DNA of 64,000 nt from an uncultured Dysgonomonas sp. (lineage in GTDB: Bacteria > Bacteroidota > Bacteroidia > Bacteroidales > Dysgonomonadaceae): assembly GCF_900079725.1 (NCBI RefSeq), contig NZ_LT599032.1, positions 370,948 to 434,947 on the forward strand, in the 5' to 3' direction. The translations under genes were made by a program, and so were the position numbers. Within the stretch, counting starts at the first letter, position 1, and every line of letters starts with the position of its first letter. Positions 1,995 through 12,050 of the stretch are shown piece by piece. Below the pieces are notes generated by a model. That model was given only the letters and a program-made list of their open reading frames with translations, was not told where the DNA came from and did no database searches.

Positions 1995-2110
1995 AAACAG
2001 GTAAATTACAAATCAAAAATTGATTTTGCCCGAAAACCTCAAGCCACACTCAAAGAACGGAGGGTATTATATTATCAAACTATAGAATATTATGGAGTTT
2101 TATAAAAATA

Positions 2111-2132
2111 ACGGGAGTTCAAAGGCTCCCGT
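2111..2132 (-). terminator. Terminator of the recombinase gene
   Basis: A 7-bp GC-rich stem (ACGGGAG paired with CTCCCGT, 8-nt loop) lies just after the stop codon of the minus-strand recombinase. Read on the minus strand it is followed by a T-rich tract (TTATTTTT), so it fits an intrinsic terminator. Confidence 0.7.
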
Positions 2133-2140
2133 CTTAAATA

Positions 2141-3067
2141 CTACTTCAAAGTCTTAAACATCTTATCTATACATTTTTTCTTTTGCTCTAAATTGGGGTG
2201 TACATATAGATTCAATGTCGTAGTTATATTAGAATGTCCGAGAAGTACACTTACTGTTTTATAATCGCACTCACTTTCGATGCAACGTGTAGCGAAGCTG
2301 TGCCTCAAGCCGTGAAATTTTAATTCTGGAATACCCAATGCTTTTATAAATTGCTTAAAGTAGCTTCGGTAGGTTCTTGGCTCTGTTGGTTTAGCTTCGT
2401 TTGTCAAGACAAAAAAATCTTTATTAACCACCTTCTTGATGGGTTTCAAAATTCGAGACAATTCGCGAGTCATTGGAATATCCCGAATAGAATTTCGAGT
2501 TTTTGGAGTGTCAAGTATTACTTCGGTATGTCTATTGCCTGCTTCCACAACATATACACGCTGAATTGTCCGCCTAATGCTTATTATCCCCGTATCTGTG
2601 TTGATGTCGTCCCAAGTCAGTGCACAAACTTCCCCAATTCTCATCCCCGCAGCCAGACACACATATATCCCCAAATTTCTAAAAGTAAAATGCGTTTGAA
2701 CATAGTTCATTATTTTCTTCTGATCCGATCTGCTCAACACTTCAATATTCTGTTTTTCTCGCTGTGTAGGGAACTTAATATCAAATGGGTTATAATCAAA
2801 CAAATCACCTTTTGCTCCGAACTTCAAGACCATCTTCAAAACTATTAAAATATCCTTGATAGACTTTTGGCTCAACCCCACTTCTAGTTTCTCAAAAACA
2901 AACGACTGTACCTCGGCTTCTTGTATTTTGTCCATATCCCCAAAAGCAGATAGTATGTGATTCTCGATCAGGAGCATATAAGCCGAGTAGGTCGATTTTT
3001 TCACATATTGCTTTTTGTCTACCGCCCATAAGTCAATGATTTCTTTGACTTTTTTTTTGTTTTCCAT
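2141..3067 (-). CDS. Tyrosine site-specific recombinase (probable hsdS invertase)
   Basis: This 308-residue tyrosine recombinase has an N-terminal SAM-like core-binding domain (about 1-110) and a C-terminal catalytic domain. Catalytic residues visible are R143 (in AGMRIGEV), H252 and R255 (HGLRH), H278 (LLGHSN) and the nucleophile Y288 (LNLYVH). The start is ATG at 3067. It lies 76 bp outside the outer inverted repeat of the hsdS locus and reads away from it, so inversion of the hsdS segment would not disrupt it. Tyrosine recombinases next to hsdS pairs are known in Bacteroidales as the enzymes that shuffle specificity cassettes. No phage or conjugation genes lie nearby, so a prophage or ICE integrase is less likely. 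That it acts on the hsdS repeats is inference from position. Confidence 0.92.
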   Translation of the reverse strand: MENKKKVKEIIDLWAVDKKQYVKKSTYSAYMLLIENHILSAFGDMDKIQEAEVQSFVFEKLEVGLSQKSIKDILIVLKMVLKFGAKGDLFDYNPFDIKFPTQREKQNIEVLSRSDQKKIMNYVQTHFTFRNLGIYVCLAAGMRIGEVCALTWDDINTDTGIISIRRTIQRVYVVEAGNRHTEVILDTPKTRNSIRDIPMTRELSRILKPIKKVVNKDFFVLTNEAKPTEPRTYRSYFKQFIKALGIPELKFHGLRHSFATRCIESECDYKTVSVLLGHSNITTTLNLYVHPNLEQKKKCIDKMFKTLK

Positions 3068-3142
3068 TGTTGTTTTATTCTAAATTAGTTAATACTTGTA
3101 TCAATTAAAAGATACAAAAAATCCTGAAGTTTTATCCTTAAG

Positions 3143-3188
3143 GTTCCAAATTTGAGATTCCCTGAATTTGAGGGCGAGTGGGAAGTGA
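3143..3188 (+). repeat. Outer inverted repeat, left copy (46 bp)
   Basis: These 46 bases are the exact reverse complement of 5381-5426. They encode the start of the conserved HsdS N-terminal segment (VPNLRFPEFEGEWEV). Identity ends sharply on both sides (3142 and 3189), as expected for a recombination or gene-conversion tract. Confidence 0.95.
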
Positions 3189-4309
3189 CATTTCTTGGAA
3201 ATGAGTGCACGGTTAACCCGAAAGTATCTACTCTAGAAAGTGAATTTGTTTACGTCGATTTAGAGTCAGTAGTTAAAGGAGTATTGATAAGTACAAATCA
3301 TATAAATAGGTCGGAAGCTCCGAGCCGAGCTCAAAGAGTTCTTTCGGATAAAGATATATTATTTCAATGTGTACGCCCCTATCAGTTAAACAATTATATT
3401 TATCATAGACAAGGCAGTAAGCAATGGGTAGCTTCCACAGGATATGCACAAATACGGACAAAGCATAATATTGATTTCCTTTATCAATTATTAAATTCTC
3501 CTCAATTCAATCAAGAAGTAATGCTTCGCTGTACGGGTACAAGTTATCCTGCAATATCGGGTACAGATCTTGGAAATATCCCAATATCAATTTGTTCCAA
3601 TGAAGAGCAAAAGAAAATAGGAGGGCTATTATTTCGGATAGACGATCAGATTGCCACCCAAAGCAAAATAATTGAGGGTTTGAAGGAATTAAAAGCTTGG
3701 CTCAGCAAACAACTATTTAGTCGCAAGCTCCGCTTCAAAGATGAGAATGGGAATGATTTTCCAGAGTGGGTGGAAACGAAATTAGGGGAAATAGCAGAAA
3801 CGTATTCAGGCGGAACACCTACTTCGACAAATAATAGCTATTATATTGGGAATATTCCATTTATTAAGTCGGGAGAAATTTCATCTGATAAAACAGAACA
3901 GTTCATCAATGAGGAGGCTTTGAAAAATTCGTCAGCAAAAATGGTATCTAAAGGCGATTTACTACTAGCCTTATATGGTGCGACCAGTGGAGAGGTTGCA
4001 ATATCTCAAATAGCAGGTGCTATAAATCAAGCAGTGTTAGTTATTAAGAGTATGCAAAATACTAATTTCCTTCATCATTTCTTAAGATGTAATAAGGAAA
4101 ATATAATTTCTACATACCTTCAAGGTGGACAAGGTAATTTATCGGCACAAATTGTAAAAAATATAACTATAAATCTTCCATCCCTCACTGAACAGAAAAA
4201 AATAGCCGATTTCCTTTCTGAAATCGACAATAAAGTAGAAGTTGAAACTACAACATTTGACTTGCTGACCAAACAAAAACATTATCTTTTACGACAGATG
4301 TTTATATAA
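3143..4309 (+). CDS. hsdS: Silent hsdS cassette (type I specificity subunit without start)
   Basis: HsdS carries two target-recognition domains (TRDs), each reading one half of the split DNA target. This copy has two TRDs separated by the conserved central helix region (IDDQIATQSKIIEGLKELKAWLSKQLFS) and ends in LLRQMFI. It has no usable start: upstream of 3143 the frame meets a TGA at 3125-3127 with no ATG, and the first possible initiator is a TTG inside the repeat (3152). The active copy supplies 13 extra N-terminal codons. It is therefore a stored cassette, expressed only when inverted behind hsdM. After inversion at the 46-bp repeats it would join in frame and give about 401 residues. It converges on the active hsdS and overlaps it by 8 bp. 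Seen: sequence, frame, repeats. Inference: silent state. Confidence 0.88.
   Translation, partial: VPNLRFPEFEGEWEVTFLGNECTVNPKVSTLESEFVYVDLESVVKGVLISTNHINRSEAPSRAQRVLSDKDILFQCVRPYQLNNYIYHRQGSKQWVASTGYAQIRTKHNIDFLYQLLNSPQFNQEVMLRCTGTSYPAISGTDLGNIPISICSNEEQKKIGGLLFRIDDQIATQSKIIEGLKELKAWLSKQLFSRKLRFKDENGNDFPEWVETKLGEIAETYSGGTPTSTNNSYYIGNIPFIKSGEISSDKTEQFINEEALKNSSAKMVSKGDLLLALYGATSGEVAISQIAGAINQAVLVIKSMQNTNFLHHFLRCNKENIISTYLQGGQGNLSAQIVKNITINLPSLTEQKKIADFLSEIDNKVEVETTTFDLLTKQKHYLLRQMFI
3657..3744 (+). repeat. Inner inverted repeat, left copy (88 bp)
   Basis: These 88 bases are the exact reverse complement of 4882-4969. They encode the central conserved linker between TRD1 and TRD2. Both copies are in the same codon phase (first base is codon position 2), so crossover here swaps TRD2 without a frameshift. 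Confidence 0.95.
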
Positions 4310-4317
4310 ACATCTGT
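4294..4317. repeat. 24-bp perfect palindrome at the hsdS tail-to-tail junction
   Basis: The sequence starts ACAGATGTTTAT and continues with its own reverse complement. It encodes the last codons (Q-M-F-I-stop) of both convergent hsdS genes at once, so both proteins end identically and their stops overlap. It marks the symmetry axis of the invertible locus. It could also form a weak hairpin in either transcript; no T-tract follows. Confidence 0.9.
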
Positions 4318-5465
4318 TTGAGGAGGTATTTTTTCTGAATTTCTAATTGTTGTAATACTTTAGACTCTATTCTGATCTTATAATCATAAGAAGAAAGAAA
4401 ATCAGTTATTTTGCCCTGTTCCTCCATGCAAGGCTGTTCAAATCTAATTTTGGAGAAATTTTCATAAAATAAGTAATCCCTCACACCTCCTTCAACATTC
4501 TTCAAAACTTCTTTGTTAAATGAATTAGTTTTAAAGAAATGAAACAAGAAATTATCGTTTATGGAGTCTTGGGTTTTGAAACAAACATATAATGAGCTAA
4601 TAATTATATTCTCTAAATTGCCACTATACCCGATTGAACCAACGTTTATTCTTGCTGGATTATATGCAAAAGTGTGTTTGTTTATTACTTTATATAGTTT
4701 GATGTCATAACCTCTATCATCACTATCAATTCCTTCAAATTGTTCATTTTGAGGAACAAATCCGTCTTTGTTATTTATTGAATATACTGGAAGTTTTTCA
4801 TTGTTTTTATTTCTTTCACTTACAACCATTGTAACATTTCCTAATAGCTGCGTTTTCCATTCTGGAAAATCTGCCCCATCATCATCTTTGAAGCGGAGCT
4901 TGCGACTAAATAGTTGTTTGCTGAGCCAAGCTTTTAATTCCTTCAAACCCTCAATTATTTTGCTTTGGGCTGCAATACGTTCGTCTATCAGAGATAAAAA
5001 AGAAGCTATTTTTTGTTGCTCAGAAATATCGGGAATAGAAATCTCGATCTGTTCTATTGTACTTTTTGAAAGACTAGGAACACCAGATGCTTCATTATAC
5101 ATTAACCAATTTATCTGTTCAAAAACATTGAATACAAATTTAGGTAGAACGTTCTTGTACGAATAAGTATAAAATAACGTATCCACAGTCCAAAACTTAC
5201 CATTATAATAGAATGGTTTGTTAATTGTACCTTTTCGCCCAATACATACCGACTCCCCATCAAAAAGAAATTCATTCACAGAGGTCATATAGCCTCCAGT
5301 ACCAAAAACAGGAATATTTCCTTCTTTTAGATGTTTATAATCTCTACCACTCCCAACTTTAAGAATCTCTCCCAACTTCTTCACTTCCCACTCGCCCTCA
5401 AATTCAGGGAATCTCAAATTTGGAACGTTGCCCTTATTTTTTCTCTCTTCTTTCATACCAGTCAT
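4302..5465 (-). CDS. hsdS: Type I restriction-modification specificity subunit HsdS (expressed copy)
   Basis: HsdS directs the HsdM2S methylase and the HsdR2M2S nuclease to a bipartite target. The protein has TRD1 (roughly 15-165), the conserved central spacer (SKIIEGLKELKAWLSKQL), TRD2 and a C-terminal helix ending in LLKQMFI. I place the start at ATG 5465 (387 residues), about 40 bp after the hsdM stop. A second ATG at 5456 is possible, and a TTG at 5480 is less likely. It is the last gene of a minus-strand hsdR-X-hsdM-hsdS operon, so this is the copy that is transcribed. Only repeat-encoded segments are shared at the DNA level with the convergent cassette; the TRDs are unrelated by eye. 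Confidence 0.93.
   Translation of the reverse strand: MTGMKEERKNKGNVPNLRFPEFEGEWEVKKLGEILKVGSGRDYKHLKEGNIPVFGTGGYMTSVNEFLFDGESVCIGRKGTINKPFYYNGKFWTVDTLFYTYSYKNVLPKFVFNVFEQINWLMYNEASGVPSLSKSTIEQIEISIPDISEQQKIASFLSLIDERIAAQSKIIEGLKELKAWLSKQLFSRKLRFKDDDGADFPEWKTQLLGNVTMVVSERNKNNEKLPVYSINNKDGFVPQNEQFEGIDSDDRGYDIKLYKVINKHTFAYNPARINVGSIGYSGNLENIIISSLYVCFKTQDSINDNFLFHFFKTNSFNKEVLKNVEGGVRDYLFYENFSKIRFEQPCMEEQGKITDFLSSYDYKIRIESKVLQQLEIQKKYLLKQMFI
4882..4969 (-). repeat. Inner inverted repeat, right copy (88 bp)
   Basis: Exact reverse complement of 3657-3744. It lies in the linker between the two TRDs of the expressed hsdS. Recombination between the two copies inverts 3657-4969 and exchanges only TRD2. 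Confidence 0.95.
5381..5426 (-). repeat. Outer inverted repeat, right copy (46 bp)
   Basis: Exact reverse complement of 3143-3188. It lies 13 codons inside the expressed hsdS. Recombination between the copies inverts 3143-5426, replacing both TRDs while keeping the original start codon and the operon. Confidence 0.95.
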
Positions 5466-5505
5466 TGTAATGCTTTGCAATTTAACATTGAGGATTTATC
5501 CAAAA

Positions 5506-7047
5506 CTAAAAAACCAATCCTAACTCTTTTAGATACACTTCAATTTGGCTATCCAAATCGCTGCGTTTTGCTTCGAGTTCTTTAATTTCACGCATTACGG
5601 CATGAATATCTATTTCCTCTTCTTCTTCGAACGTGTCTACGTACCGAGGAATATTTAGATTAAAATCGTTGTCAATAATCTCTTGTAGTGAAGCGCGATG
5701 AGAATACTTTTCGAGTTCGGCACGAGTAGCGTAAGTATCCACAATCTTGTCTATATGCTCCTCTCTCAACTTATTCTGATTCTTTACTTTCTCAAATGCT
5801 TTTGAGGCATCAATAAACAAAATATTATCGCCATCTTTTCGGCATTTTTTGAAAACTAGTATACATGTAGGAATACTAGTTCCATAAAATAAGTTGGCTG
5901 GCAGTCCAATAATGGCATCAATATAGTTTTTGTTCTCAATCAAATAGCGGCGAATCTTACCCTCGGATGCTCCACGAAACAGCACCCCGTGAGGAGCCAC
6001 GCAAGCCATTGTACCACCATCACTTAAGTGATGTATCATGTGTAGAATAAAGGCATAATCGGCTTTGCTTTTGGGGGCTAATGCTCCGGCACGGCTAAAA
6101 CGATCGTCGGTATTATATTTGCTATCGGCAGTCCAATTAGCTGAAAATGGAGGGTTTGCTACAATGGCATCAAACACTTCATTCTCAAATTGGTCGTCCT
6201 CTAACGTATCACCACTACGTATTTCGAACTTATCGTATCGTTGATTATGCAATAGCATATTCATTCGGGCGAGGTTGTAGGTAGTAGGGTTCTTTTCCTG
6301 CCCATATATAAATTCGGCTCCGCCCTCTTTGGCTACACGTAACAGCAGCGAACCCGAACCGCAGGTGGGGTCATAAACATTACGTAACCGAGAATGATCT
6401 ACCGTAACAATACGTGCGAGAATAGTTGACACTTCCTGCGGAGTATAAAATTCGCCTGCCTTTTGTCCAGCACCGGCAGCAAATTCTCCGATCATATATT
6501 CATAAGCATCTCCTAAAACATCTATTTCGGCATCTTCCAGTCGAAAATCTATTTCGTCGAGAGCTAATAAGAGGCTACTTATTAATTTATTTTTATCGTC
6601 CGCTGTCTTACCTAGTTTGGCAGATGTCAAGTCCACATCATCGAATAAGTTTTGAAAATCATCTTGCGAATCGGCGCTCAATGTACTATCCTCGATGCGC
6701 TTGAATGCTACACCCAAAACCTCAAGTATAAACTTGCCAACCTTGGCATCTGCAATGAGTGTAGAAAACAGAAACTCCGACTCAAGGAAATATCCTATTT
6801 CTTCAATGGCAGCCTCTCTCAGCTCTTGCTTAAATTCCTCGTCCTCGGTAGCCCATGCAATTTGAAAGGTTATTTTGTCGTTTTTAAGTTGTTCATTAAT
6901 GTACAACTCTATTCGCTCAGAGAGGTATTTGTAGAATATCAATCCCAGTCCATAATTCATAAAGTCACTGGCATTCATATTTCCACGCATATCGCACGCC
7001 ATCTTCCAAAGCTGTGCTTTTAGTATTCTTTGTTGTTCTTCGCTCAT
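5506..7047 (-). CDS. hsdM: Type I restriction-modification DNA methyltransferase HsdM
   Basis: HsdM transfers a methyl group from S-adenosylmethionine to N6 of adenine in the host target, and forms the core of the restriction complex. The N-terminal helical HsdM_N domain (LWKMACDMRGNMNASDF) is followed by the N6_Mtase domain with SAM-binding motif I DPTCGSGSLLL (D226) and the catalytic NPPF motif (N298). I chose ATG 7047 (513 residues) rather than the longer TTG start at 7077, because the longer form would overlap the stop of the upstream gene. It lies 10 nt after the DUF5655 gene and about 40 nt before hsdS, in one operon. Length is usual for the family. Confidence 0.96.
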   Translation of the reverse strand: MSEEQQRILKAQLWKMACDMRGNMNASDFMNYGLGLIFYKYLSERIELYINEQLKNDKITFQIAWATEDEEFKQELREAAIEEIGYFLESEFLFSTLIADAKVGKFILEVLGVAFKRIEDSTLSADSQDDFQNLFDDVDLTSAKLGKTADDKNKLISSLLLALDEIDFRLEDAEIDVLGDAYEYMIGEFAAGAGQKAGEFYTPQEVSTILARIVTVDHSRLRNVYDPTCGSGSLLLRVAKEGGAEFIYGQEKNPTTYNLARMNMLLHNQRYDKFEIRSGDTLEDDQFENEVFDAIVANPPFSANWTADSKYNTDDRFSRAGALAPKSKADYAFILHMIHHLSDGGTMACVAPHGVLFRGASEGKIRRYLIENKNYIDAIIGLPANLFYGTSIPTCILVFKKCRKDGDNILFIDASKAFEKVKNQNKLREEHIDKIVDTYATRAELEKYSHRASLQEIIDNDFNLNIPRYVDTFEEEEEIDIHAVMREIKELEAKRSDLDSQIEVYLKELGLVF

Positions 7048-7057
7048 AATATTGTAC

Positions 7058-7963
7058 TTAGATTGCTTGTTTAACAAGACTCATTATATACTCTAGATTT
7101 TTATCATCGGCTACTTTTACTTCATAGTCTCCATTTCCGAGATGCCCGACAGATGAAATATCACGAGTAATATTTTTGGGGTCATCAAGATTACCCCTCT
7201 TAATATTGATAGTTAATTTTAAACCGTTTTTCTGTATCTCAAAATCACAAACGTTATTATTTCCTATTTTGAATGCAATATAAAATTTCTGAGGCCTAAC
7301 TTCTATTCCATCAGCAAGATTGAGAATGGATGATTTAAATTTTTCATATAACTCTATAACCTCCTCGGATTTTCCACGCAGAAGATCCTCCTCTGTATAA
7401 ACCTTTATCTCGTTTGTAACTTCCTTTAGTTCTGTATTGGTTTGAGTTATTGGCTTAATACTCTCAGCCGATTTTGTTTTACGTATAGGCGAAATAGTAA
7501 CCGTTCCATTCTCGAATCTCTTAAACTCCCAGAGTTCGATAGCAAGATCTTTGAAATTAGTTGCTTCTTTTTGATTTTCAGTAAAATCAGTAGAAACAAA
7601 TACAACTCGGGTTTGCGACCAGTCTACACTATCACGTGCCAACGTTTTCTCTAGTCCTTCATTGTACTCTAAAATGAAATCTGCTTTGTTTTGGAGCATC
7701 AAACTTAAATATGTAAACCCTTGATCAACAACACTTGCATTCCGATCTCGTTTGTATTCGATAATAACAAAAGCCTTTGATTGTGGGTCGTAGGCAAGTG
7801 TATCTATACGTTTACTCTTAATGGTAAATTCAGATTTGACTAATTCTAACCCCATAATGAGAGGTAGATTTTGTTCAAACAAATTCTGAATATCTCTTTC
7901 GAGCTTGAAAGGTTTCTCTTTAATCTGCTCCAATTTATCACCTAGGGATTTGTATAGTATCAT
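7058..7963 (-). CDS. DUF5655-type protein with PD-(D/E)XK nuclease-like domain, embedded in the RM operon
   Basis: The N-terminal half has a nuclease-like core: RIDTLAYDPQSKAFVIIEYKR offers the D...ExK triad typical of the PD-(D/E)XK fold, as in DUF91/NucS-like enzymes. The C-terminal part (about 200-300) resembles the DUF5655 domain, which is often found at the end of such proteins. The start is ATG 7963 (301 residues, 14 nt after the hsdR stop); an upstream TTG at 7987 overlaps hsdR and is less likely. It sits between hsdR and hsdM with no gaps, so it is co-transcribed. Its role is not established: it may be an auxiliary nuclease or an RM accessory factor. Domain assignment is from memory of the families, not from a search. 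Confidence 0.7.
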   Translation of the reverse strand: MILYKSLGDKLEQIKEKPFKLERDIQNLFEQNLPLIMGLELVKSEFTIKSKRIDTLAYDPQSKAFVIIEYKRDRNASVVDQGFTYLSLMLQNKADFILEYNEGLEKTLARDSVDWSQTRVVFVSTDFTENQKEATNFKDLAIELWEFKRFENGTVTISPIRKTKSAESIKPITQTNTELKEVTNEIKVYTEEDLLRGKSEEVIELYEKFKSSILNLADGIEVRPQKFYIAFKIGNNNVCDFEIQKNGLKLTINIKRGNLDDPKNITRDISSVGHLGNGDYEVKVADDKNLEYIMSLVKQAI

Positions 7964-7977
7964 AAATTTAATTTGCC

Positions 7978-10746
7978 TTAATTCCAACTAAACAGTTTAA
8001 TAATATCTTGCATTTTTTCAATAATGCTTTTTTTCTTCGCTTGGTTTTCCCTAAATGTTAATATCAGTGGTTCAATCGCCCTTTTGATAATTTCATTCTT
8101 GGGTTTACCAAGATACTCAAATTCTGTGATATATTCATGCAACAATTCTTCGTTGACACCCTCTTCGGCAGCTACTTTTCCAATGGCTTTTGCACGTTCG
8201 GCTATGATATACTTATCTAAATCACTTTCTATATCACTGGGTGTGTCTTTATCCTGTCTACCATCTATATGGATGCGTATAAATTCGTCAATAAGTCTAC
8301 TTTTTGATCTCAAAACAGGATCGCCATTCACTGTGTCGAGCACCGCTTTTCGATCTTTGTTATATGATGCCGACTCTGGGCGCAATTCTTGCAACAAAGC
8401 AAGAATATACATTACATTGATGATGTCACGATGGATAAGCTCCAGCTCAAAATCAATATCCGATAATATGCTTTCGGCATCTGGATTTATTGGTTTAACG
8501 GCAAGTTGATTTGACATATCTAAATATTTGCTCTGAAAGTCAGCAAATAGCTGATCTTTTATCTCTAAAGCATTTCCATTGAATTCATTATATCCTTTCA
8601 TCTGAGTCCGTAGACGGAGCATCGCTCTGAAAAGCATGACGAATGTACGCTTATCTTGTTCCGACTGAAACTCCGATATTGAATCTATTGTGGGGTATTT
8701 TTCTAAAAAACTAATAGCCTGATTATTGAATTCTTCAACTAAGCTTTGGTATGGTTTCATCAAAACTATTTCTGACGAATTGCTATTAGAGTATAGCGAA
8801 ATAGCTGCATCTGTATTCTCTTTCAAATCTCTAAAACAGACTATTTTGCCAAACCGTTTTTTCTCATTCAAAACCCTGTTCGTTCTCGAAAATGCCTGCA
8901 ACAAACCATGATAATTAAGATTCTTGTCTACATAGAGTGTATTTAACCGCTTAGCATCGAATCCTGTGAGAAACATATTTGCTACTAACAAGAGGTCAAT
9001 CTGACGATTTTTCATTCGCTTGTTGATATCATCGTAGTATAGGTTGAAATTATCGGTGTTGAAGTCCGTTCCAAACATCTCGTTATAATCTCGGATATAC
9101 CCCTCCAAAATATCACGTGTGTTGCCATCTGAGACAAAACCCTCGTTCATTCCGGTAAGCTCATCCTCGCTGTCTTCATTTTGAGTATAAGTGAATATTG
9201 TTGCTATTTTTAAATCGTGGTTCCTACTCTTGAATAGATCGTAATATTTTGTAACCATGGGTACGCCCCCAACAGCAAACATCGCATTAAAGTCACGTTC
9301 GTAGGTAGAAGTATTATAGTTGTCCAAGATAAAATCTACAATATCTTCCATACGTTTGTCGCTCATCATTGCCTCTCGCGTATCAATAGATTTGACCTTT
9401 TTGTCATCTTCGTTTCTTTTTTTCCATTTACCATGATATTCCACCAAAAAGCTCAACACATTTTCATCCGCAATAGCATCTTTGATGAGATATTCATGCA
9501 GACGTTCCCCAAAAATATCTTTCGTGGTTCGTCCGTCATTCGCATTTTTAGCAAGAATAGGTGTACCTGTAAATCCAAAATAGCGAATATGATTGAAGAA
9601 ATCTGTTATATTAGTGTGCATATCCCCAAACTGACTCCGATGACACTCATCAAAAATCATCACAATATTTTTTTCTTTCACGTCCTGCAATCCTTTACTA
9701 AACCGTTCTTTTTGAACGGCATTGTTTAGTTTTTGAATTGTGGTAATCATCAACTTTTTGTTTGATTGTAATGCTTTTACAAGGGCTTTGGTGTTATCTG
9801 TACTATCTACAGCTCCAGGTGAAAACGCATCATATTCTTTCTTGGTTTGCGTATCAAGATCATGTCTATCAACAACAAACAGCACCTTATCTATGTCAGG
9901 CATCTCAGAAATTAATTGAGCAGCCTTAAACGATGTTAGTGTCTTTCCCGAACCGGTAGTATGCCAAATATATCCGTTTTTAGTTGAATTGGCAACCTTG
10001 TCAATCAATGCTTCAACAGCATAGTATTGGTACGGACGAAGTATCATAAGACACTTATCTGATTGATGCAATACAACATATTTTGCCAACATTTTACCCA
10101 GTGTGCATTGGTCAAAAAACATCGCTGCAAAAATATCAAGACGGTCTATATGATTGTTTTTGAAATCTGCCCACGGAAATGTGAATTTATATCCCTGATT
10201 AGGATTGTTTGTGAAATATCGGGTATTAACACCATTGGATATTACAAATATCTGAATGTATTTGAATAATCCTTTGAATGCAGTTTTATGATAACGTTGC
10301 ACTTGGCTGTATGCTTGTTTCAGTTCTATACCTCGTTTTTTCAATTCAATCTGAACTAAAGGAAGTCCATTCACTAAAATCGTAACATCATAACGCGACT
10401 TACGGCGTCCTTCGTCTGTGATTTGACTTGATACCTGAAACTCGTTCTTACACCACTCTTGCGTGTTAAGAAATTCGATCCATTTCGTTGTACCATCTTC
10501 ACGAACTAAGGAAAATTTGTCGCGCAACTTGATAGCTTTATCGAATATAGAACCACTTTCGAGATGAATCATTATTCGCCCGAATTCGTCGTCTGAAAGA
10601 ACTATCTTATTGTGATTATCAAGTTGTTTTCGAAAATTGTTAATAAGAGCTTCTTCATCTTCAATTTTTACAGCTTGGTAATTCATCGAAACGAGGGTCT
10701 TTATTAGACCTGATTCTAAAGCTTGTTCGGATTGGGTTGATGTCAT
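7978..10746 (-). CDS. hsdR: Type I restriction enzyme HsdR (endonuclease/translocase subunit)
   Basis: HsdR translocates DNA with an SF2 motor and cuts it far from the recognition site when the target is unmethylated. The N-terminal HSDR_N nuclease has a PD-(D/E)XK-like triad (D120 in SRYDVTI, then E134-L-K136). The motor has Walker A TTGSGKT near residue 265, the DECH box (FDECHRSQFG) near 365, and helicase motif III-like FTGTP. The C-terminal helical region would bind HsdM. Its 922 residues are normal for the family. It starts with ATG at 10746 and is the first gene of the hsdR-DUF5655-hsdM-hsdS operon, divergent from the Fic gene across a 197-bp control region. Confidence 0.96.
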   Translation of the reverse strand: MTSTQSEQALESGLIKTLVSMNYQAVKIEDEEALINNFRKQLDNHNKIVLSDDEFGRIMIHLESGSIFDKAIKLRDKFSLVREDGTTKWIEFLNTQEWCKNEFQVSSQITDEGRRKSRYDVTILVNGLPLVQIELKKRGIELKQAYSQVQRYHKTAFKGLFKYIQIFVISNGVNTRYFTNNPNQGYKFTFPWADFKNNHIDRLDIFAAMFFDQCTLGKMLAKYVVLHQSDKCLMILRPYQYYAVEALIDKVANSTKNGYIWHTTGSGKTLTSFKAAQLISEMPDIDKVLFVVDRHDLDTQTKKEYDAFSPGAVDSTDNTKALVKALQSNKKLMITTIQKLNNAVQKERFSKGLQDVKEKNIVMIFDECHRSQFGDMHTNITDFFNHIRYFGFTGTPILAKNANDGRTTKDIFGERLHEYLIKDAIADENVLSFLVEYHGKWKKRNEDDKKVKSIDTREAMMSDKRMEDIVDFILDNYNTSTYERDFNAMFAVGGVPMVTKYYDLFKSRNHDLKIATIFTYTQNEDSEDELTGMNEGFVSDGNTRDILEGYIRDYNEMFGTDFNTDNFNLYYDDINKRMKNRQIDLLLVANMFLTGFDAKRLNTLYVDKNLNYHGLLQAFSRTNRVLNEKKRFGKIVCFRDLKENTDAAISLYSNSNSSEIVLMKPYQSLVEEFNNQAISFLEKYPTIDSISEFQSEQDKRTFVMLFRAMLRLRTQMKGYNEFNGNALEIKDQLFADFQSKYLDMSNQLAVKPINPDAESILSDIDFELELIHRDIINVMYILALLQELRPESASYNKDRKAVLDTVNGDPVLRSKSRLIDEFIRIHIDGRQDKDTPSDIESDLDKYIIAERAKAIGKVAAEEGVNEELLHEYITEFEYLGKPKNEIIKRAIEPLILTFRENQAKKKSIIEKMQDIIKLFSWN

Positions 10747-10943: not shown

Positions 10944-12050
10944 ATGGCAAAATATATTTACCAATATCCGCAATGGCCTGATTTTAGTTGGGATGACAAA
11001 CAAATTCAACCTATACTTGGAGAGGTTCGTCATCTGCAAGGGAAAATCATCGGTCAAATGAATGTTTTGGGCTTTTCTTTGAAAGAGACAACTTCATTAG
11101 CTACATTAACCGAAGATGTTATTAAGTCATCTGAGATTGAGGGAGAAAGGCTTAATTACGATCAAGTACGTTCTTCGATTGCGCGTCGTTTGGGAATTGA
11201 AACAGCTGGGATGGTAGCTTCGAACAGATATGTGGAAGGTGTTGTTGACATGATGCTTGATGCAACGCAAAACTATCAAAAACCAATTGATAACGAGCGA
11301 CTTTTCGGATGGCATGCAGCATTGTTTCCTACAGGTAGAAGTGGTATGCAAAAAATTGAGGTGGGGCAATATCGCACAGGAGAAATGCAGGTAGTTTCGG
11401 GGGCGATGGGTAAAGAAAAAGTACATTTTGAAGCTCCGCCTGCAGAGAGTGTTCCCAAAGAGATGGATTTGTTTATTACGTGGCTCAATAGTGATACAAA
11501 GTTAGATTCTGTATTAAAATCTGCTATCGCTCACTTTTGGTTCATTATTATACATCCTTTTGATGATGGTAATGGTCGTATTGCTCGAGCAATATCCGAT
11601 CTCTTACTTGCACGTTCTGATAATAGTAACCAGCGGTTTTACAGTTTGTCGAGCCAAATACTTGCACAAAAAAAGAGATATTACGAGATGTTGCAGAAAG
11701 TGCAACACAGCAGTGGAGATATTACTCCTTGGTTTAAGTGGTATCTTGATTGTTTATATGATGCACTCGATGTTACTGCTTTGACTTTAAAAAAAGTTTT
11801 ATCTAAGTCCAATTTTTGGGAGCAATATAAAGATATACAATTCAATCATCGTCAAAACTTGATTCTCAATAAGGTCTTGGATGGCTTTGACGGTAAACTC
11901 ACATCATCGAAGTGGGCAAAGATAGCAAAATGTTCATCTGACACGGCTCTTCGTGACATTCAGGATTTGATTTCGAAAGGTATACTTCGCAAAGAGGCAC
12001 AAGGTGGGCGGAGTACTAATTACGAACTTGGTTTTGATGTTGAAGAATAA
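10944..12050 (+). CDS. Fic family protein, DUF4172 type with C-terminal winged helix
   Basis: Fic enzymes usually transfer AMP from ATP to a hydroxyl side chain of a target protein. The catalytic loop HPFDDGNGR starts at H204 and is intact. An inhibitory helix motif of the form SxxxEG (SSEIEG, near residue 57) lies N-terminal to the Fic core, so this is a class II, self-inhibited enzyme. The first about 80 residues (YIYQYPQWPDFSW) match the DUF4172 lead domain, and the last about 60 (SSKWAKIAKCSSDTALRDIQ) look like a winged helix. It is divergent from the hsdR operon. Fic genes often sit beside type I RM genes, but no functional link is proven. Substrate unknown. Confidence 0.93.
   Translation: MAKYIYQYPQWPDFSWDDKQIQPILGEVRHLQGKIIGQMNVLGFSLKETTSLATLTEDVIKSSEIEGERLNYDQVRSSIARRLGIETAGMVASNRYVEGVVDMMLDATQNYQKPIDNERLFGWHAALFPTGRSGMQKIEVGQYRTGEMQVVSGAMGKEKVHFEAPPAESVPKEMDLFITWLNSDTKLDSVLKSAIAHFWFIIIHPFDDGNGRIARAISDLLLARSDNSNQRFYSLSSQILAQKKRYYEMLQKVQHSSGDITPWFKWYLDCLYDALDVTALTLKKVLSKSNFWEQYKDIQFNHRQNLILNKVLDGFDGKLTSSKWAKIAKCSSDTALRDIQDLISKGILRKEAQGGRSTNYELGFDVEE

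What the first reader, a model, noticed from the sequence alone, without database searches (positions are those of the whole stretch)
3143..5426. Four-state hsdS shufflon bounded by two nested pairs of perfect inverted repeats
Two tail-to-tail hsdS genes share exactly two DNA segments: a 46-bp repeat (3143-3188 / 5381-5426) at the N-terminus and an 88-bp repeat (3657-3744 / 4882-4969) between TRD1 and TRD2. Inversion at the outer pair swaps both TRDs, at the inner pair only TRD2, and both together only TRD1. So one operon can express four HsdS proteins with four different DNA targets, changing the methylome and possibly gene expression. Phase-variable type I systems are known in Bacteroidales, but this locus, its TRDs and repeats are specific. 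All four joins keep frame (computed from coordinates: 387, 401, 382 and 406 residues).
Basis: partly seen in the sequence, partly recalled or inferred. Interest (0 to 1): 0.85.

Follow-up and report, generated by a model that had tools for sequence, protein, structure and literature searches.

The report
Four-state invertible hsdS restriction locus
A bacterium of the genus Dysgonomonas carries a DNA-targeting restriction enzyme whose target-reading gene can be re-assembled into four versions by flipping DNA between two pairs of repeats, probably by the recombinase encoded next door; this kind of switch is already known in related bacteria.

Summary
In detail: the 46-bp and 88-bp inverted repeats are exact and all four recombinants stay open at the stated lengths. 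The locus is a complete type I R-M operon with a second, start-less hsdS in opposite orientation. Among relatives of that recombinase, 42 of 45 loci with >4 kb upstream carry hsdS on both strands, 36 of 45 with exact inverted repeats. Where arm identity could be anchored, it converges on two short cores, GTTCCNAATTTGAGATT (outer) and CAAARCAAAATAAT (inner). In four related genomes (five loci) the hsdM-side and recombinase-side contigs stop at the same base of the outer repeat, as a mixed-orientation population would give. No reads or methylation data were available for this strain. The architecture is the published 'four-way' inverting type I system, and the module is that of the B. fragilis hsdS shufflon with adjacent tyrosine integrase. 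It is a new member of a known kind; the shared cores are a modest addition.

The parts
2141..3067 (-). tyrosine recombinase (308 aa), likely invertase; divergent from the silent hsdS
   Evidence: Pfam Phage_integrase 3.8e-29 and SAM-like N-terminal domain; R143, H252, R255, H278, Y288 (catalytic set assigned from my knowledge of the family) invariant in the window's protein and 8 relatives; relatives sit beside hsdS pairs
3143..3188 (+). outer inverted repeat, silent side (46 bp), holds the outer core GTTCCNAATTTGAGATT
   Evidence: exact reverse complement of 5381-5426; core
3152..4309 (+). silent hsdS: frame open, begins inside the outer repeat, no ATG start of its own
   Evidence: Methylase_S 8.7e-34, two stretches; frame preceded by a stop, no ATG before the repeat
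3189..3656 (+). silent first target recognition domain (TRD1b)
   Evidence: between outer and inner repeats; PF01420 match at genome 374237-374632, window 3290-3685
3657..3744 (+). inner inverted repeat, silent side (88 bp), holds the inner core CAAARCAAAATAAT
   Evidence: exact reverse complement of 4882-4969; core
3745..4309 (+). silent second target recognition domain (TRD2b) and C-terminus
   Evidence: PF01420 205-368 of the protein
4294..4317 (.). 24-bp perfect palindrome over both hsdS stop codons
   Evidence: similar palindromes at this junction in relatives
4302..4881 (-). expressed second target recognition domain (TRD2a) and C-terminus
   Evidence: PF01420 match at genome 375288-375770, window 4341-4823
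4302..5480 (-). expressed hsdS (392 aa from TTG, 387 aa from ATG 5465)
   Evidence: Methylase_S 8.2e-35; directly downstream of hsdM
4882..4969 (-). inner inverted repeat, expressed side (88 bp)
4970..5380 (-). expressed first target recognition domain (TRD1a)
   Evidence: PF01420 30-180 of the protein
5381..5426 (-). outer inverted repeat, expressed side (46 bp)
5506..7077 (-). hsdM, type I methyltransferase
   Evidence: N6_Mtase 1.4e-112, HsdM_N; TIGR00497 hsdM above cut-off
7058..7987 (-). DUF5655 protein between hsdM and hsdR, PADLOC candidate PDC-S18
7978..10746 (-). hsdR, restriction subunit
   Evidence: HSDR_N, T1R_D3-like, EcoR124_C; TIGR00348 hsdR above cut-off

Best explanation
This is an inverting ('four-way') type I restriction-modification locus. 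The tyrosine recombinase at 2141-3067 recognises a short core inside the outer repeat pair and another inside the inner pair and inverts the DNA between the arms of a pair. Outer inversion exchanges both TRDs, inner inversion only TRD2, and the two together only TRD1, so the single expressed hsdS behind hsdM takes one of four sequences. Each should direct HsdM and HsdR to a different bipartite target, so that a clonal population is a mixture of four methylation and restriction types, which would protect part of the population from a phage adapted to another type. Shown: repeats, frames, gene content, recombinase linkage, core conservation. Inferred: inversion in this strain, the recombinase as agent, four targets, benefit.
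For: Exact repeats and four open joins. Complete hsdRMS operon. Four PF01420 matches at E <= 0.001 in the 5.22-Mb single-contig genome, all in this locus. Recombinase relatives: of 79 loci (the 80 kept less one identical duplicate), 45 hold >4 kb upstream; of these 42 have hsdS on both strands, 41 hsdM, 36 exact inverted repeats of 20 nt or more between hsdS copies, 20 two or more such pairs. Of 84 loci examined, 30 for each repeat had a shared run of 15 nt or more that could be anchored on the protein motif, and the runs converge on one place (27 and 28 of 30 at the peak; the outer 30 include one duplicate). Outer-core Leu is TTG in 95 of 119 copies against 21% background and inner-core Ile ATA in 65 of 71 against 27%; taking only the copy nearest the recombinase, TTG in 59 of 71 loci read. 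Contig ends cluster 85-280 bp (22 of 80) and 622-735 bp (5 of 80) upstream of the recombinase, where the two repeats lie, against 1 of 80 within 300 bp downstream. In four genomes (five loci) hsdM-side and recombinase-side contigs end at the same base after 20, 26, 30, 41 and 95 shared nt. The 38-bp B. fragilis shufflon repeat printed in PMC3090145 matches the window's two inner arms at 30 and 27 of 38.
Against: No read data or second assembly of this strain; only one arrangement seen. Nothing shows that this recombinase, rather than homologous recombination across 46 and 88 bp, does the work. Assembly breaks can also come from repeats alone; with 20-41 shared nt that is unlikely but k-mer sizes are unknown, and the 95-nt case is compatible with it. 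A sixth flank pair that I tried (Crocinitomicaceae) shares only 1 terminal base, and in G007, G419 and G424 a copy of the outer core lies inside a contig, not at its end. 9 of 45 long loci lack exact repeats of 20 nt or more between hsdS copies, and in 5 of the 22 contigs ending 85-280 bp upstream the outer motif was not read. In HsdS genes without the recombinase in view the Leu codon of P.LRF was also TTG in 4 of 5 copies, so that control is inconclusive. The outer and inner repeats share no 8-mer, so recognition of both by one enzyme is not obvious from sequence.
Confidence: 0.9

Rival explanations
1. The repeats recombine by general homologous recombination (RecA), and the neighbouring recombinase only integrates a mobile element or acts elsewhere.
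For: 46 and 88 bp may be long enough for slow homologous recombination (general knowledge); for pneumococcal spnIII, recombination was reported independent of all known pneumococcal site-specific recombinases (title in search listing).
Against: The linkage of this recombinase lineage to hsdS pairs across many Bacteroidota, and the same short core kept in loci whose longest exact repeats are only 20-30 nt, short for efficient homologous recombination (general knowledge).
Confidence: 0.08
2. A frozen or degenerate locus: repeats are relics, and a single HsdS is expressed.
For: Only one arrangement is known for this strain; the silent hsdS has no ATG start.
Against: Exact 46- and 88-bp identity between divergent flanks, all frames intact, recombinase frame intact with its catalytic residues.
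Confidence: 0.05
3. The second hsdS is expressed in place and the cell makes two specificities at once; inversion is incidental.
For: Its frame is fully open, with a TTG at 3152.
Against: That TTG lies inside the shared repeat, and the frame has no ATG start and no N-terminal extension like that of the expressed copy.
Confidence: 0.04

Closest known systems
Bacteroides fragilis hsdS shufflon BF1839-1842 (NCTC 9343) and BF638R 1146-1149 (PMC3090145, section 15 read; the later analysis by Ben-Assa et al. 2020 is not held, and was seen only in reference lists)
   Different: NCTC 9343 has four repeat sets and eight combinations; the window has two pairs and four
Four-way inverting type I R-M systems, e.g. 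Streptococcus suis SSU1271-1274; also noted ad hoc in Porphyromonas gingivalis and Tannerella forsythia (PMC7394358, passages)
   Same: One repeat pair before the 5' TRD and one between TRDs, two hsdS genes, four alleles
   Different: Another phylum for S. suis; sequences were not compared here
Streptococcus pneumoniae SpnD39III (PMC7394358 passages; PsrA papers seen as search listing with abstract starts)
   Same: Locus-encoded recombinase and hsdS inverted repeats
   Different: Six alleles from three hsdS genes; recombinase sequences were not compared here
Inverton group 145 of a defined human gut community (PMC11892184, passages)
   Same: Invertons overlapping restriction subunit S genes, enriched for tyrosine-type recombinases
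   Different: Group also enriched for mobilization genes; not tested here whether it is the same repeat family

Membership tests
Inverting (phase-variable) type I R-M system | Complete hsdR, hsdM, hsdS operon | tested here: met
Inverting (phase-variable) type I R-M system | Second, distinct hsdS with different TRDs in opposite orientation | tested here: met
Inverting (phase-variable) type I R-M system | Inverted repeats before TRD1 and between TRD1 and TRD2 giving in-frame recombinants | tested here: met
Inverting (phase-variable) type I R-M system | More than one arrangement in a population | not testable with these tools
   no reads of this strain; only indirect evidence from relatives' contig ends
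Inverting (phase-variable) type I R-M system | Different methylation motif per allele | not testable with these tools
   needs SMRT or Nanopore data
Bacteroidota hsdS shufflon with adjacent tyrosine integrase | Tyrosine integrase beside the silent hsdS | tested here: met
Bacteroidota hsdS shufflon with adjacent tyrosine integrase | Inner repeat homologous to the published 38-bp B. fragilis repeat | tested here: met
   30 of 38 and 27 of 38 at the two arms, next best 22 in window 3000-5600
Bacteroidota hsdS shufflon with adjacent tyrosine integrase | Integrase shown to catalyse the inversions | not testable with these tools
   needs deletion and complementation
Phasevarion (global gene regulation by the switch) | Expression of many genes differs between alleles | not testable with these tools
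   needs RNA-seq of locked alleles

The most novel reading that the evidence does not exclude
One recombinase lineage spread over Bacteroidota has turned two conserved protein-coding segments of HsdS into dual-coded recombination sites: the DNA of the N-terminal segment (GTTCCNAATTTGAGATT) and of the central segment (CAAARCAAAATAAT) is held fixed at synonymous positions because the same enzyme cuts there, and the two unlike cores keep outer and inner exchanges apart, so TRDs shuffle only within their class. The palindrome at the tail-to-tail junction may be a third such element.
Probability: 0.4. Interest if true: 0.45.

Novelty: new member of a known kind. Interest (0 to 1): 0.3.

Why it matters
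It adds a clean 2x2 example with a nearby recombinase and candidate core sites, which makes the question of which enzyme flips hsdS, and where exactly it cuts, testable in one short locus. For anyone working with this Dysgonomonas it predicts mixed methylation and variable DNA uptake within a clone. The core motifs could be used to find such switches, or to spot them in short-read assemblies by the contig ends they seem to cause.

Tried and rejected
Searched viral contigs for an exact 43-nt part of the outer repeat: none. Looked for further copies of the cores in the own genome that could be extra recombination partners: the two arms plus one two-mismatch stray for each core, with a reversed-pattern control also giving one hit each, so no distant partner is indicated. 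Looked for a motif common to outer and inner repeats of the window: no shared 8-mer, 10-mer with one, 12-mer with two or 14-mer with three mismatches. Used HsdS genes from a sample of 198 genomes of the order as a control for codon choice: 125 of 198 had a match, but only 30 loci of about 2-3.5 kb were read, 29 of 30 without the recombinase in view (it may lie beyond), and P.LRF was too rare to decide; what there was (TTG in 4 of 5) leaned against me. Two loci of Dysgonomonas sp. 216 (L078, L081) were hoped to be two orientations; they are the same sequence letter for letter. L081 was dropped (palindrome list); still contain it. In one search one of the 71 motif hits (L098) does not look like the HsdS motif by its surroundings; I left it in. 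No structure was predicted: it would not decide between the explanations.

Full report
What was checked. Both repeat pairs are exact at the given coordinates (46 bp, 3143-3188 with 5381-5426; 88 bp, 3657-3744 with 4882-4969). In 2001-7100 the only other exact inverted matches of 14 nt or more are one 14-nt two-arm match and palindromes of 14, 16 and 24 nt.

What is there. On the minus strand: hsdR (7978-10746), a DUF5655 protein (7058-7987, PADLOC candidate PDC-S18), hsdM (5506-7077) and the expressed hsdS (4302-5480). On the plus strand, overlapping tail to tail by 8 nt, the silent hsdS (3152-4309). Divergent from it, a 308-aa tyrosine recombinase (2141-3067, minus). The silent copy starts inside the outer repeat and has no ATG. 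The genome is a single contig of 5.22 Mb with four TRD-domain matches at E <= 0.001, all in this locus, so no distant silent cassette was found. The genus is Dysgonomonas: contigs of same-genus genomes equal named records in length and match place (G007 C37, 6877 bp, with NZ_QVMO01000133, Dysgonomonas sp. 521; G006 C6, 94917 bp, with NZ_DLFW01000020, Dysgonomonas sp. UBA7710).

The recombinase. In a search of 393 genomes of the order, 14 had a relative at E <= 1e-40. I read 18 stretches taken around such hits and around hsdS hits. Of the full-length relatives at 55% identity or more, those whose contig reaches beyond the start of the recombinase show hsdS next to it (L040, L041, L044 to L048, L056; L048 only a 57-residue piece); in L043 and L049 the contig ends 349 and 179 bp away and no hsdS was found. 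Those below 50% (L050 to L053) had no hsdS hit, nor had L054, which holds only a C-terminal fragment of a relative. A scan of named genomes kept the 80 best of 553 confirmed relatives, in Bacteroidia, Flavobacteriia, Cytophagia, Sphingobacteriia and others (class names from my knowledge of the listed genera). After dropping one duplicate, 45 of 79 hold more than 4 kb upstream: 42 of 45 have hsdS on both strands, 41 hsdM, 41 hsdR, 36 exact inverted repeats of 20 nt or more between hsdS copies, 20 at least two such pairs. Of the three exceptions, L065 shows hsdS on one strand only, L126 has hsdM, then a short hsdS-like hit overlapping a shortened recombinase frame, then hsdR, and L090 has a TonB-dependent receptor gene instead.

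The core sites. Exact identity between arms was laid over a protein motif in 84 loci (window, 80, and L040, L041, L045). In 30 rows for the outer repeat (29 distinct loci) and 30 for the inner repeat a shared run of 15 nt or more was found near the motif; the other loci had no such run or lacked one arm. The runs converge: 27 of 30 at offsets -9 to +13 around the LRFPEF codons (GTTCCNAATTTGAGATT and the next few bases), 28 of 30 at offsets 3 to 16 around the QNKII codons (CAAARCAAAATAAT). In L069, L100 and L105 the longest outer run lies to the side of that core. The window has both cores. Codon choice there is far from the background of the same loci: Leu TTG 95 of 119 against 21%, Arg AGA 95 of 119 against 31%, Ile ATA 65 of 71 against 27% (copies within a locus and the duplicate are counted, and the background is all open frames of 250 codons or more). 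Taking only the copy nearest the recombinase, TTG 59 of 71 loci; in 8 of 79 loci no motif was read. LRF or KII elsewhere in the same loci does not show this (TTG 25 of 75, ATA 49 of 180). A control on HsdS genes without the recombinase in view was too small and leaned the other way for Leu (TTG in 4 of 5). Shared descent of the segment is therefore not excluded as part of the cause.

Signs of inversion in relatives. 22 of 80 contigs end 85-280 bp upstream of the recombinase and 5 of 80 end 622-735 bp upstream, at the places of the two repeats; downstream only 1 of 80 ends within 300 bp. In 17 of the 22 the outer motif is read before the end, in several (L066, L092, L094, L102, L140) the end falls within or just after the core; in 4 of the 5 the inner motif (TQN or TQNKII) is read at or near the end. 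A core search in 14 handles (13 distinct genomes, since L094 lies in G005) matched in 11 of 14. Together with the G005 contig seen earlier, both flanks were found as contig ends in four genomes, five loci: Dysgonomonas UBA5412, Flavobacterium rakeshii, Epilithonimonas hungarica and Pedobacter miscanthi (two loci, paired by me according to where they end). In each, the hsdM-side and recombinase-side contigs stop at the same base, after 20, 30, 95, 41 and 26 shared nt. Stops at the last shared base of 20 to 41 nt are what I would expect of an assembler when both orientations are in the reads; the 95-nt case could be a plain repeat collapse. A sixth pair (Crocinitomicaceae; no hsdM hit was seen on the second contig) shares only 1 nt at its ends, and in G007, G419 and G424 a core copy lies inside a contig. 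This evidence is indirect and concerns relatives, not the window.

Mechanism. Site-specific inversion at either pair by the adjacent recombinase is the best reading (0.9 for the switch as a whole; the agent is somewhat less sure). The window's two repeats share no 8-mer, which would keep the two exchanges apart but leaves open how one enzyme reads both.

Comparison with what is known. PMC7394358 (passages) describes the same architecture and calls it a four-way switch, with Streptococcus suis as example, and mentions inverting systems in Porphyromonas gingivalis and Tannerella forsythia. PMC3090145 (passages; section 15 read) describes the B. [quoted passage not shown] PMC5903667 (passages) calls recombination between hsdS genes a well-known phenomenon. 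PMC11892184 (passages) reports an inverton group enriched for restriction S genes and tyrosine-type recombinases. So the kind and even the Bacteroidales version are known. For this genus, the library held one paper with both Dysgonomonas and hsdS, on an unrelated topic by its title, and none with Dysgonomonas and inverton; this covers open-licence PubMed Central papers only.

Verdict. Observation confirmed, interpretation supported, novelty low: a new member of a known kind. The added points are the recombinase, the two cores and the contig-end evidence.

Noticed in passing
window 4294-4317; L067 around 772 and 1983; L069 around 7673; L079 around 7632 and 8735; L063 around 5594; L072 around 8714; L040 9342-9379: The hsdS tail-to-tail junction is a perfect palindrome (24 bp in the window). 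Some relatives have perfect palindromes of 38-48 bp at hsdS ends, one 48-mer identical in L067, L069 and L079. Terminator, third recombination site or by-product of shared C-termini: not resolved.
   Followed up: partly
L090 1806-6557 (Pedobacter sp. ASV28): A close relative of this recombinase sits beside a TonB-dependent receptor (SusC-like by its sequence, my reading) and between inverted repeats of 20-63 nt, one arm overlapping the receptor's 5' end: the same lineage may have been turned to surface-receptor switching.
   Followed up: partly
window 7058-7987: DUF5655 protein with a sub-cut-off NucS-like match lies between hsdM and hsdR and matches the PADLOC candidate defence family PDC-S18 at 1.5e-140; a relative also lies near the recombinase or operon in L055, L078 and L079.
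   Followed up: no
window 10944-12050: Fic-domain protein (DUF4172, SoFic-like, PADLOC 3.3e-48) next to hsdR, on the opposite strand.
   Followed up: no
L040, L041, L055, L078, L079, L134, L138: Some relatives carry more hsdS pieces than the window (extra pieces on either strand), so the 2x2 window locus looks like a small version of a larger TRD library.
   Followed up: partly
L126 8174-10849 (Mucilaginibacter oryzae): hsdM is followed by a short hsdS-like hit (9774-10106) overlapping a shortened recombinase frame, with no hsdS pair: a collapsed or mis-assembled shufflon.
   Followed up: no
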